In this document: one piece after another, positions 32,265 to 46,730 of the stretch
Layout of the letters: every line of letters starts with the position of its first letter
Numbering within the stretch: the first letter of the stretch is position 1
Origin: an uncultured Loktanella sp.
GTDB taxonomy: Bacteria; Pseudomonadota; Alphaproteobacteria; Rhodobacterales; Rhodobacteraceae
DNA length: 64,000 nt
Assembly: GCA_937132065.1 (NCBI GenBank)
Contig: CAKZNT010000037.1
Span: 1-64,000 of the forward strand
Direction of reading: 5' to 3'
Made by a program: the position numbers and the translations under genes
Notes under the pieces: generated by a model
What the model was told of the DNA's origin: nothing
Databases searched by the model: none
What the model saw: the letters and a program-made list of their open reading frames with translations, nothing else

Positions 32265-33311
32265 ATGGGACTGTTTATTCTGCGCCGCCTTGGGGTCATG
32301 ATCCTCACGGCAATCTGCCTGACGTTTGTTGTCTTCTGGCTGACAAACCTCGCGCCAAACCTCGAAAAACTCGCCAAAACGCAAGGCAACGCGCGTATGT
32401 CCGACGAAGCTGTGATCAGCTACTTGGAAAACCGCGGCTATGCGCAACCTTTGCCGATCAAATACGGGCAATGGATGGGGCTCTTGCCGGGCTATGTCAT
32501 CGAGGGAACGGACGGCGAACTCAGAGGGCGCTGCGCAGAACGCGGACAAGACCCGACCGATGCGCCGAAATTCTGCGGCGTTCTGCAAGGCGAATGGGGG
32601 TTCTCCACACGCTTTAAAGAAGACGTCAGCAAAATCATCTCAGTGCGGCTCGGCCATACCGCAAAGCTGATGGGGCTTGTCATGCTGGTCATGGTTCCGG
32701 GCGCGTTGATTATCGGCGTCCTTGCGGGCATGCGCGAAGGATCAAGGACCGACCGGACCTTGTCGACATTCTCGATCATTTCGACGGCGACGCCAGAATA
32801 TGTGTCGGGTGTTGTCCTGATTGCACTCTTCGGAACGGCGACCTTCGGGATGAAAATCTTTAAGGGGAACGCCAACTCGGCGATGGACGATGCAACCTTC
32901 GAGAACTTCACCCTGCCCGTCCTGACAATCGCGCTTTACGGCATGGGCTATATTGCGCGGATGACACGGGCCTCGATGACCGAAGTCATGACGGCGCAGT
33001 ATATCCGCACCGCGCGGCTCAAGGGGGTCGCGTTTCGCACAATCGTGATGAAACACGCGTTGCGCAACGCCCTGATTGCACCCTTCACGGTGATCATGTT
33101 GCAATTCCCGTGGCTCTTGAACGGCGTTGTGATCGTCGAAAGCCTGTTTAGCTATAAAGGCTTCGGGTGGACCCTCGTCGAGGCGGCCTCAACGAACGAC
33201 ATCGAACTTCTGCTTGGGGTTTCTGTGGTGTCGGTCTTTGTGGTGCTGGTCACGCAACTGATCTCCGACATCGGTTACGTCTTCCTCAATCCTCGTATTC
33301 GTATCGCTTAA
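32265..33311 (+). CDS. ABC transporter permease (DppB-like)
   Basis: A 348-aa inner-membrane permease of the binding-protein-dependent family. The first helix RLGVMILTAICLTFVVFWLT opens the protein. An extended periplasmic segment (about residues 30-125) contains two cysteines (GRCAERG and KFCGVL). The transport domain follows with the EAA-type loop YIRTARLKGVAFRTIVMKHA that contacts the ATPase. The ATG is preceded by AGGGG. It pairs with the next permease. Confidence 0.92.
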   Translation: MGLFILRRLGVMILTAICLTFVVFWLTNLAPNLEKLAKTQGNARMSDEAVISYLENRGYAQPLPIKYGQWMGLLPGYVIEGTDGELRGRCAERGQDPTDAPKFCGVLQGEWGFSTRFKEDVSKIISVRLGHTAKLMGLVMLVMVPGALIIGVLAGMREGSRTDRTLSTFSIISTATPEYVSGVVLIALFGTATFGMKIFKGNANSAMDDATFENFTLPVLTIALYGMGYIARMTRASMTEVMTAQYIRTARLKGVAFRTIVMKHALRNALIAPFTVIMLQFPWLLNGVVIVESLFSYKGFGWTLVEAASTNDIELLLGVSVVSVFVVLVTQLISDIGYVFLNPRIRIA

Positions 33312-44169: not shown

Positions 44170-45714
44170 TCAACGCCCTTTGAACAGGCCACCAAGGATG
44201 CCGCGCACGATGCGGCGTCCTGTTGTGCCCTTGAGTTCTTTCATCACCACATTTGCGAGCGCGCCGCCAAATCCGCTATCGGATTTACGCCGGCTGCGGG
44301 TTGTCGTGTGGGTCGTTTGTGCGCCCTCTTGATAGCGCCGCGCTTGCTTGAACTCGCGTTCCTTTTCTTCAAGTTCGGCCTCGCGGGCTTCTGCGGCTTC
44401 TGCCTCTTTGGCGGCATTCGCGGCACGTTTGCCAAGCATCTCTGACGCGCTTTCGCGGTCCAGAGGCGTGTCGTATTTGCCCGCCATGTCGGACCCTGCC
44501 ATGATCGCATCACGCACTGGTTTGCCGATTGGACCAAGTTGGGAGGACGGTGGCCGGATCAAGGTGCGCTCGACGACTTGCGGAATGCCCTTTTTATCCA
44601 GAAACGATGTAACCGCCTCGCCCGTGCCGACCTGCTGGATAGCCTCTGCGGTATCAAAGGCGGGATTGTCGCGATAGGTCTCGGCAGCCGACTTGAGTTC
44701 TTTGCGGTCTTTGGCCGTGAACGCCCGAAGCGCGTGCTGCACGCGGTTGCCCAACTGGCCCAAAACATCATCAGGAATATCGCCGGGGTTCTGGGTGACA
44801 AAGTAGACGCCGACCGCCTTGGAGCGGATCAGGCGTGCGACCTGCTCGACCTTGTCAACCAAGGCCTTGGGCGCATCATCAAAGAGCAAATGCGCCTCGT
44901 CAAAGAAGAACACAAGCTTGGGCTTATCGGGGTTGCCGACCTCTGGCAGCTCCTCGAAGAGTTCCGACAACAGCCATAGCAGGAAAGTCGCATAAAGCCG
45001 CGGACTGCCCATCAATTTGTCAGCGGCCAGAATGTTGATCTCGCCTTTTCCGTCCGCACGCACACGCATCAGATCGGCAAGTTCGAGCGCAGGTTCGCCA
45101 AACAAGGCGTTGCCCCCCTGGTTTTCGAGCACAAGGAGCTGGCGTTGGATCGCGCCGACCGACGAGGATGCCACATTGCCGTAGCGTAGCGAAAGCTCAG
45201 AGGCGTTTTGCCCGACCCAGACCAGAAGCGCTTGCAGGTCTTTGAGGTCAAGCAGCGGCAAGCCCTCTTCGTCAGCCACTCGGAAAGCGACGTTCAGCAC
45301 GCCCTCTTGCACATCCGTCAGCTCAAGCAAACGCGACAGCAAGAGCGGCCCCATTTCGGCCACCGTTGCGCGGATCGGGTGACCCTGCTCGCCAAAGAGA
45401 TCCCAGAATGTCACGGGAAAGCTATCGTATTGCAGATCAAGCCCGATTGTTTCGCTGCGGCTCATGAAGGCCTCGTGCAGCTTGAACCCCTCGGATCCGG
45501 CAACCGCCAGCCCAGATAGATCACCTTTTACGTCCGACAAAAACACAGGCACGCCTGCATTCGAGAACCCTTCGGCCATGATCTGAAGCGTCACCGTCTT
45601 ACCCGTGCCAGTTGCCCCCGCGACCAAGCCATGTCGGTTCGATTTGTCCAGCAACAGCACCTGTGGCGCGCCATATGCGTCGCCGCCACCGCCAATAAAA
45701 ATGTCTTCCGCCAT
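44170..45714 (-). CDS. HerA-like ATPase (DUF853)
   Basis: A 514-aa P-loop ATPase of the HerA/FtsK superfamily, DUF853 branch. Walker A is [12 protein letters not shown] near residue 33 and Walker B is [16 protein letters not shown] near residue 285, with a later arginine-rich region. A charged Glu/Arg helix (about residues 440-480) precedes the basic C-terminus. The cellular role of this branch is not settled; archaeal HerA works in DNA end resection. I use ATG 45714, preceded by AAGGG; an ATG at 45750 is also in frame. No NurA-like nuclease is nearby. Confidence 0.9.
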
Positions 45715-45772
45715 GTTCGGCCCTTTTTGTATGAATTCTTGTCGGGCCAAAATACATTCTTAAGGTTTTCAT

Positions 45773-45872
45773 GCCAGTCTATTCGCACGATCAGGCGTCA
45801 CCATGTCCCCCGACGCTTGATCGTATCCTCCCTATCAGACTGCCGTGCCTTCGGGCGCGGCCTTTTCATTTC
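45773..45872 (+). ncRNA. Candidate structured small RNA A
   Basis: Three nested or adjacent helices are visible. P1 is CAGTCT (45775-45780) with AGACTG (45837-45842). P2 inside it is a 12-bp stem (one G-T pair), 45788-45799 with 45812-45823, capped by a 12-nt loop ACCATGTCCCCC. A terminator hairpin GCCGTGCC-TTCG-GGCGCGGC (45842-45861) stacks on P1 and is followed by CTTTTCATTTC. The 13-nt bulge on the 3' side of P2 holds CCTCCC, able to bind Shine-Dalgarno sequences. TTGTCG (45739-45744) and TAAGGT (45761-45766) could be the promoter. Known families I compared from memory did not match. Confidence 0.5.
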
Positions 45873-45909
45873 TGGTGCAAGTTTTTGAACTCAAACGCTT
45901 TGTTTTGTA

Positions 45910-45938
45910 TTGACGCCTCGCGCGGCTTCACTTAACGT
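45910..45938 (+). promoter_or_regulatory. Candidate promoter for small RNA B
   Basis: TTGACG (45910-45915) and TAACGT (45933-45938) have a 17-bp spacer, predicting a start near 45945 inside a stretch with no gene. Confidence 0.4.
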
Positions 45939-45944
45939 TCGATC

Positions 45945-46005
45945 AAATAGTCGGCTAAGTCCGATAGGGAGAAGACGGAAAAGGGTCCTTTGGGGCCCTT
46001 TTTCT
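45945..46005 (+). ncRNA. Candidate small RNA B with terminator
   Basis: About 60 nt from the predicted start to an intrinsic terminator (AAAAGGGTCC paired with GGGGCCCTTTT and a T run, 45979-46003). It contains GATAGGGAG (45963-45971), the exact reverse complement of CTCCCTATC (45828-45836) in the internal bulge of candidate RNA A, so the two could pair. It carries no ORF of note. Alternatively it is a leader or a bare terminator, because the hairpin also reads acceptably on the minus strand. Confidence 0.4.
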
Positions 46006-46061
46006 ATGTCTAACCCCGATTTTTCGGCGGCGGAACCTCGCCATAGCGCCCTCTTTTCCCA

Positions 46062-46089
46062 CTGACATATCAAGAATGGCGTGCTAAAT
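46062..46089 (+). promoter_or_regulatory. Promoter of the IalB-like gene
   Basis: CTGACA (46062-46067) and CTAAAT (46084-46089) with a 16-bp spacer predict a start near 46096, about 23 nt before the ATG. Confidence 0.5.
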
Positions 46090-46118
46090 CGCGGTAACAG
46101 AAATTTAGGAAGTATCCC

Positions 46119-46730
46119 ATGTTGCAGTCGATCAAACCTCTCCTTCTCGCCACTTTGCTTGCAGCGGCCACCAATGTCGCAGCGCAGGAAACAGAAACGC
46201 CCGCTGCAGAAGCGGAGGCGCCAGCAGCAGAGGCCGCCCCGTCCGATCTGGACATGGGCACAGAGGTTGTGGCTGAAACTGCGGTTGGCACGCCTTACGT
46301 GCGTGAAGAATTTGGGGACTGGGCGCTGCGCTGTTTGCGCGCCGAAGAAGGCACAGCCGACCCATGCCAGCTCTATCAACTGCTCAATGACGCCGAGGGT
46401 AACTCGGTCGCCGAAATCAGCATGTTCCCCCTCGCTAATGGCGGGCAAGCCGCCGCAGGTGCGACGATTGTTGTGCCACTTGAAACACTGCTGACCGAGC
46501 AACTGTTGATCTCGGTCGACGGGTCAGCGGCACGCCGTTACCCGTTCACATTCTGTAACCGTGCGGGCTGCGTTGCACGTGTCGGATTTACGCAGGCTGA
46601 AATCGACCAGTTCAAGCGCGGCAATGCAGCGACATTGCAGATGGTTCCAGCCGCCGCACCAGACGAGAAAGTCATTTTGAACATCTCGCTGACCGGCTTT
46701 ACTGCGGGGTATGACGGCGCAGGTCAGTAA
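46119..46730 (+). CDS. Invasion-associated locus B (IalB) family protein
   Basis: A 203-aa exported protein. A signal peptide (LLLATLLAAATNVAAQ, cleavage near residue 23) is followed by an Ala/Glu-rich low-complexity linker (about 24-50) and an IalB domain (about 60-200). That domain holds the conserved EFGDWALRCLR and cysteine pairs in CLRAEEGTADPCQLYQ and FCNRAGCVARVGF. IalB was named in Bartonella, but free-living alphaproteobacteria carry it too, so invasion is not implied. It has its own promoter and terminator. Confidence 0.9.
   Translation: MLQSIKPLLLATLLAAATNVAAQETETPAAEAEAPAAEAAPSDLDMGTEVVAETAVGTPYVREEFGDWALRCLRAEEGTADPCQLYQLLNDAEGNSVAEISMFPLANGGQAAAGATIVVPLETLLTEQLLISVDGSAARRYPFTFCNRAGCVARVGFTQAEIDQFKRGNAATLQMVPAAAPDEKVILNISLTGFTAGYDGAGQ

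What the first reader, a model, noticed from the sequence alone, without database searches (positions are those of the whole stretch)
45773..45872. Structured small RNA candidate beside the HerA-like gene
In a 404-bp stretch without a convincing gene, a compact fold is visible: a 6-bp P1, an asymmetric internal loop (7 and 13 nt), a 12-bp P2 with a 12-nt loop ending CCCCC, and a GC-rich UUCG-capped terminator stacked on P1. The 13-nt bulge exposes CCUCCC, the kind of motif Rhodobacter stress RNAs use against Shine-Dalgarno sequences, but there is no DUF1127 gene upstream as for the known CcsR RNAs. The helices are read directly; RNA identity and function are inference.
Basis: partly seen in the sequence, partly recalled or inferred. 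Interest (0 to 1): 0.72.

Follow-up and report, generated by a model that had tools for sequence, protein, structure and literature searches.

The report
SorX-like small RNA with antisense partner
The segment is very probably a real, conserved small RNA related to a known oxidative-stress RNA, and just downstream lies a second conserved small RNA element complementary to its pairing region, so the two may form an RNA regulator and its RNA sponge.

Summary
The fold is present and is not chance (z -5.84). The segment (element A) recurs beside the HerA-like gene in many Rhodobacteraceae. Hairpin P2 and the terminator are supported; P1 is not. A's CCUCCC belongs to a conserved seed, CUCCCUGUYRGACUUG, followed by a terminator. 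Both are shared with SorX (Rfam RF02784), a stress sRNA of Rhodobacter sphaeroides. A scores only 22.5 bits against a cut-off of 46.6 and sits elsewhere, so it is SorX-like, not a SorX.

The main result lies outside the given coordinates. Element B (about 45943-46006) has a sigma-70-like promoter by eye, GTCGGCTAAGTCCGATAGGGAG and a terminator hairpin. It is complementary to A's seed: 1503 of 1524 cells in 127 selected pairs, position 10 left out. It is also complementary to SorX: 16 or more consecutive pairs in 12 of 18 genomes. The order herA / A / B / ialB is widely kept.

My reading: A is a SorX-type trans-acting sRNA and B a stand-alone anti-sRNA (sponge). Conservation and complementarity are shown. 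Transcription, titration, its direction and the mRNA targets are inferred.

The parts
45773..45868 (+). Element A: SorX-like small RNA; the 5' end is not known
   Evidence: Fold z -5.84; same place in 24 of 35 other genus genomes; model R2
45776..45841 (+).
45787..45824 (+). P2 hairpin (45787-45799 with 45812-45824) with C-rich loop
   Evidence: 10 of 13 pairs changed on both sides in 9 sequences; mean z -2.11 in 125 loci against about 0 in two control regions
45828..45842 (+). Seed CTCCCTATCAGACTG, shared in type with SorX
45842..45861 (+). Terminator hairpin of A
45910..45938 (+). Sigma-70-like promoter of B by eye: TTGACG, 17 nt, TAACGT. The promoter scan, with its stricter -10 rule, listed none in 45500-46200
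   Evidence: TTGACN-N16-18-TNNNNT precedes B in 199 of 211 loci, 1.2% of shuffles
45943..46006 (+). Element B: putative anti-sRNA (sponge)
   Evidence: Model R1, 83 bits (the window is in the model's training set); family search
45957..45971 (+). Antiseed of B, AAGTCCGATAGGGAG, complementary to the seed of A and of SorX-type RNAs
46062..46090 (+). Separate sigma-70-like site before the IalB gene, CTGACA-17-TAAATC
   Evidence: Pattern in 124 of 192 loci, 1.7% of shuffles; not listed by the scan
44170..45714 (-). HerA-like gene, divergent from A
   Evidence: PF05872, 732 bits
46119..46730 (+). IalB-family gene downstream of B
   Evidence: PF06776, 127 bits

Best explanation
Element A is a trans-acting small RNA of SorX type: a hairpin of variable sequence, then the seed CUCCCUGUYRGACUUG, able to cover Shine-Dalgarno sequences, then a terminator. 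Element B is an independent small RNA whose AAGUCCGACAGGGAG mimics a ribosome-binding site. It pairs with the seed of A and with the same seed in SorX and in a second SorX-like RNA elsewhere in the genome. At low sRNA level B would occupy the seeds; when stress raises the sRNAs above B, free seeds would repress mRNAs, probably of transporter genes. Shown: structure of A, conservation, gene order, complementarity. Inferred: that both are transcribed, that B titrates A and SorX rather than the reverse, and the targets.
For: P2 conserved as a structure. Seed of A shared with SorX-type loci. B-type opposite-strand copy near the HerA-side element in 13 of 13 genomes searched. B model: 150 family matches listed, by my count, all at 36.7 bits or more, against at most 28.5 bits in 24 genomes of other families. 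Predicted A/B seed duplex -31.7 kcal/mol on average against -12.5 with shuffled A; own partners better than every one of 20000 partner permutations. Double changes that keep pairs in L001, L012, L187, L086, L213. SorX/B duplex -34.4 kcal/mol on average in 18 genomes. Promoter pattern before B in 199 of 211 loci. SorX is Hfq-dependent and represses potA of a polyamine transporter (PMC9438474, passages).
Against: No expression data. No promoter for A was found. The promoter and terminator scan lists neither B's promoter nor B's terminator. Covariation between A and B is modest: 60 of 5000 partner permutations reach the observed number of paired cells, and swapped partners still average -30.9 kcal/mol. 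Both sides were selected by consensus-like patterns. Position 10 is a mismatch in 107 of 127 pairs, so the longest uninterrupted A/B run is 9 nt in 103 of 127. The folding prediction for A leaves the seed only partly open: 0.64 unpaired for its first 7 nt, 0.43 for the next 9. In the window the minimum-energy fold of B is not the family hairpin. The excess of target-like sites is weak.
Confidence: 0.55

Rival explanations
1. The reverse direction: B is the regulator, acting on mRNAs that carry CUCCCUGUC-like sites, and A (perhaps SorX too) is its sponge.
For: B has the clearer promoter, while none was found for A. Complementarity is symmetric.
Against: SorX, with the same seed, is reported to act on an mRNA, potA (PMC9438474, passages). 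B's antiseed resembles a ribosome-binding site, which fits a target mimic.
Confidence: 0.15
2. B is the leader of the IalB gene: its terminator is an attenuator, and A pairs with it to control readthrough, as StsR acts on UpsM and the dcw leader in R. sphaeroides.
For: IalB lies downstream on the same strand in 185 of 194 loci. StsR/UpsM is a described sRNA/leader pair (PMC8307010, PMC8625941, passages).
Against: IalB has its own sigma-70-like site in 124 of 192 loci against 1.7% of shuffles.
Confidence: 0.12
3. The A/B complementarity is an inverted repeat in the DNA, kept by copying between the two arms or by a DNA-level role, not by pairing of two RNAs.
For: The arms lie about 100-130 nt apart, so local copying could produce matched changes. 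Unlike A, SorX did not change along with B where B changed (G030, G022).
Against: The same complementarity holds with SorX at an unlinked locus. B carries a promoter pattern and a terminator hairpin of its own, and A keeps an RNA-like structure.
Confidence: 0.08
4. A is only a terminator with chance upstream pairing, not a functional RNA.
For: No promoter for A was identified. The conserved block upstream fits the divergent herA promoter.
Against: P2 z mean -2.11 against -0.03 and -0.06 in control regions; covariation score 0.340 against 0.063-0.124 when slid; seed conserved across genera.
Confidence: 0.05

Closest known systems
SorX (RSs2461; Rfam RF02784), R. sphaeroides
   Same: Seed CUCCCUGUYRGACUUG followed by a GC-rich terminator
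   Different: SorX is cut from the 3' UTR of an OmpR-type gene (PMC6238624, passages); A stands beside the divergent HerA-like gene, has an extra hairpin P2, and scores 22.5 bits in the window, up to 36.8 among the HerA-side relatives that I identified, against a cut-off of 46.6
SroC, sponge of GcvB in enteric bacteria
   Same: An RNA that titrates an sRNA controlling transporter mRNAs (PMC9438474, passages); proposed for B
   Different: SroC is processed from the gltIJKL transcript; B seems to have its own promoter and lies next to one of its partners
StsR / UpsM, R. sphaeroides
   Same: One sRNA pairing with another RNA in the same family of bacteria (PMC8307010, PMC8625941, passages)
   Different: UpsM comes from the dcw leader, StsR is RpoHI/RpoHII-dependent; the locus of B is another one
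CcsR1-4, R. sphaeroides
   Different: Made from the 3' UTR of ccaF1 (PMC8625941, passages); upstream of A lies the divergent HerA-like gene

Membership tests
SorX (RF02784) | Score at or above the curated cut-off, 46.6 bits | tested here: not met
   22.5 bits
SorX (RF02784) | Located in the 3' UTR of an OmpR-type gene | tested here: not met
   A is beside the divergent HerA-like gene. The SorX locus checked in L028 follows a PF00072/PF00486 gene, seed 33 nt after its stop
SorX (RF02784) | Seed CUCCCUGUUGGACUU followed by a terminator | tested here: met
   Seed type and terminator shared, one mismatch to the degenerate pattern in the window
SorX (RF02784) | RNase E maturation, stress induction, repression of potA | not testable with these tools
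   Needs experiments; published for SorX only
[quoted passage not shown]
   Upstream of A is the divergent HerA-like gene
sRNA sponge / anti-sRNA (B) | Extended complementarity to the seed of an sRNA | tested here: met
sRNA sponge / anti-sRNA (B) | Separate transcript | tested here: inconclusive
   Promoter pattern before B and terminator hairpin, but neither is listed by the scan; no RNA data
sRNA sponge / anti-sRNA (B) | Binding lowers level or activity of the sRNA in cells | not testable with these tools
   Needs genetics or interactome data

The most novel reading that the evidence does not exclude
Much of the Rhodobacteraceae keeps a dedicated anti-sRNA gene (B), beside one SorX-type sRNA (A), that is complementary to the common seed of a whole class of stress sRNAs and sets the threshold above which they shut down transporter mRNAs.
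Probability: 0.45. Interest if true: 0.75.

Novelty: new variant of a known kind. Interest (0 to 1): 0.6.

Why it matters
SorX is a studied stress RNA. In the papers that I could search (titles, abstract starts and the passages read) I saw no sponge described for it. A conserved RNA of about 60 nt that fits its seed in many genera would add a negative arm to the oxidative-stress RNA network of a major marine and photosynthetic family. It would also make sRNA thresholds directly testable, with natural compensatory variants at hand.

Tried and rejected
P1 as a conserved helix: not supported. In nine sequences it has no pair with a change on both sides, and one of its five pairs is broken in 4 of 9. 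In 125 loci the expected pair number is 3.72 against 2.87 with the 5' end shuffled, 72 of 125 above their own control.

SorX ortholog and CcsR member: rejected on score or place. B as leader of IalB: kept as a rival.

A promoter for A: looked for by eye. The conserved block upstream fits the herA promoter on the other strand (CTGGCA-17-TATTTT) with a TTAAC inside; the 5' end of A stays open.

Genus-wide MAFFT and RNAalifold of A recovered only the terminator, because P2 varies too much in sequence; a shuffle test per locus replaced it.

Target search: AAGNCYRACARGGAG before ATG matches in 100 of 295 genomes, but most rows are reverse complements of SorX-type seeds. By my count 32 rows are not, against 15 for one scrambled pattern: a hint only. 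Of the 32, 10 had been fetched and were read; 3 of these 10 are SBP or NMT1 proteins. Four near-matches picked by me stand before solute-binding-protein genes (4 of 4); this is not an unbiased sample. In the window's own genome the three other near-matches (L245-L247) lie inside reading frames, not at a start. Three more near-matches stand before an ATG (L300, L302, L304); their genes were not read. The seed pattern itself has 71 matches in 13 genomes against 37 for the pattern read backwards (my sums).

Reach of B: the tally of 260 of 295 at E <= 0.01 overstates it. In 24 genomes of other families 7 also match at that level, best 28.5 bits, and 7 of the 10 listed matches cover only the terminator half.

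Rows dropped: one search dropped 6 of 101. One search found no A in 32 loci by its pattern, though models or other scripts find A in several of these. One search dropped 16 of 143. The 211 loci include repeated genomes and five matches outside the family (L101, L125, L135, L138, L142), which I take for chance.

Full report
Observation. A terminator-like site at 45842-45861 is listed by the scan, which expects 0.6 by chance; the same scan lists no promoter in 45500-46200. The stretch lies between a HerA-like gene (PF05872, - strand) and an IalB-family gene (PF06776, + strand). Rfam gives no match here at its own cut-offs. The best match below them is SorX, 22.5 bits, E 0.0039.

Conservation of A. 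BLAST with 45700-45900 finds the place in 24 of 35 other genomes of the genus and 0 of 24 genomes of other families. The loci share a conserved 3' half, CCTCCCTGTYNGACTKGCCGYGCC, loop and terminator, and a variable 5' half. The variable half still forms a hairpin. In 125 loci the 49 nt before the seed have mean z -2.11, 82% below -1. The control stretches of the same loci have -0.03 (17%; 125 loci) and -0.06 (21%; 116 loci). In nine sequences chosen by me, scored on the window's structure, P2 has 77.7% of cells paired and 10 of 13 pairs with a change on both sides; the covariation score of the whole structure is 0.340 against 0.063-0.124 for slid versions. P1 has no pair changed on both sides. 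Genus-wide RNAalifold recovered only the terminator.

Relation to SorX. The SorX model has a match over its cut-off in 34 of 60 genomes searched; in many genomes of the genus two loci pass, and the HerA-side element is listed below the cut-off (the same search also rings below the cut-off in 8 of 14 control genomes). In L028 the seed starts 33 nt after the stop of a gene with PF00072 and PF00486, as published for SorX in the 3' UTR of RSP_0847 (PMC6238624, PMC8625941, passages). The locus over the cut-off in the window's own genome lies about 94 nt after a LysR-type gene (L244); no SorX on the OmpR side was seen there, and the genome is incomplete. The printed SorX-type loci carry CTCCCTGTTGGACT.

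Element B. In each of 13 genomes searched with CTCCYTRTYRGACTT, allowing one mismatch, a further copy lies on the opposite strand near the HerA-side element (A itself is among the rows in 11 of 13). This is B: TTGAC-type promoter, GTCGGCYAAGTCCGAYAGGGAG, terminator hairpin. A covariance model built from 23 genus sequences matches in 260 of 295 family genomes at E <= 0.01. The listing holds 150 rows by my count, all at 36.7 bits or more. Other families reach at most 28.5 bits. From listed ranks below 30 I fetched 40 loci; the B core is seen in 40 of 40, taking together (in L223, L242, L243 the first script reported the complement of A; in L216 the second script missed B). A was found by at least one of the two scripts in 34 of these 40 (not in L212, L217, L227, L232, L235, L238). 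A promoter pattern precedes B in 199 of 211 loci, 1.2% of shuffles. In 23 genus sequences B's hairpin GTCGG/CCGAC varies on one side only, and one pair is broken in 2; forms changed on both sides (GCCGG/CCGGC) are seen in L232, L242 and L243. In the window alone the minimum-energy fold of B is a different one (z -2.78, 2 of 200 shuffles as low).

Pairing of A and B. By model search, 119 of 134 loci with a B match have an A match upstream on the same strand within 350 nt; 101 are distinct (only 80 of the 117 stretches were given to the models). For 127 distinct pairs kept out of 143 the predicted seed duplex averages -31.7 kcal/mol; shuffled A gives -12.5; swapped partners average -30.9, and none of 20000 permutations is as good as the own partners. 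In paired cells of positions 1-13 without 10, 1503 of 1524 pair, and 60 of 5000 permutations reach this (46 of 5000 within loop classes). So pairing is nearly absolute in this selected set, and covariation is modest. Position 10 is a mismatch in 107 of 127, and the longest uninterrupted run is 9 nt in 103 of 127.

Single events. The window has CUCCCUAUC in A and GAUAGGGAG in B, while L002, its best BLAST relative, has the G-U intermediate. L012 and L187, in different genera, each have A-U in place of G-C at position 11. L086 has C-G in place of U-A at position 8. L213 has A-U for G-C further on. Against: L211 and L225 changed on one side only and lost a pair, and L133 and L152 have mismatches inside the seed. 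B forms with a 3-nt loop go with A seeds in ACUG in 30 of 32; with the 4-nt loop, ACUUG occurs in 57 of 94.

SorX and B. In the 18 genomes for which I had both, the duplex averages -34.4 kcal/mol: 20 consecutive pairs in one (G007), 16 in 11, 13 plus 5 across a bulge in 5, and a weaker duplex, -19.7, in G025. Co-folding A and B of the window gives -79.0 against -37.6 and -25.1 alone.

Neighbourhood. HerA is divergent upstream of B in 172 of 211 loci (the other 39 have no HerA match within the fetched stretch), and IalB follows on the same strand in 185 of 194. IalB has its own sigma-70-like site in 124 of 192 loci, 1.7% of shuffles.

Mechanism. SorX is Hfq-dependent and inhibits translation of potA of a polyamine transporter (PMC9438474, passages). 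B's AAGUCCGACAGGGAG resembles a ribosome-binding site. Similar sequences stand before start codons of solute-binding-protein genes: SBP_bac_5 (L248, L250), OpuAC (L249), DctP (L254), NMT1 (L266, L288) and SBP_bac_8 (L280). The overall excess is small and the sample is partly picked. I propose that A and SorX repress such mRNAs and that B, a target mimic, titrates them. That B is transcribed, and that titration runs in this direction, is inference.

Known or new. The searches for SorX with R. sphaeroides and sRNA, sponge with SorX and Rhodobacter with sponge and sRNA showed no anti-SorX RNA in titles, abstract starts or the passages that I read. The SorX paper itself was not held, and the sRNA table of R. 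sphaeroides could not be read, so A or B may be among its uncharacterised orphans. The kind (sRNA plus sponge) is known. A sponge that stands as its own conserved gene beside one of its partners and fits a whole paralog class is, to my knowledge, a variant.

Noticed in passing
32888-33065 (-): Rfam match to Cis52_sRNA (RF02647), 126.2 bits against a cut-off of 56.
   Followed up: no
L244:3520-3604 (G000:C43): Second SorX-type RNA, over the Rfam cut-off (47.8 bits), about 94 nt after a LysR-type gene; similar seeds at such loci in relatives.
   Followed up: partly
45737-45778: Conserved block with TTAA/TTAAC between the -35 and -10 of the putative herA promoter; it recalls a CtrA half-site (recalled, not tested).
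   Followed up: no
45800-45811: The P2 loop carries ATGTCCY, found in the P2 region of 38 of 125 loci against 1% of shuffles: perhaps a second C-rich contact site.
   Followed up: partly
L148:7-54 and 2306-2370: In a Flavimaricola MAG A and B lie about 2.2 kb apart instead of about 100 nt, which suggests an insertion between them.
   Followed up: no
L251, L252, L253, L255 (around 950-970): A similar stretch, AAATCYGACAAGGAGGAAAGCGCGGGC, recurs in three genomes of the genus without an evident gene start.
   Followed up: no
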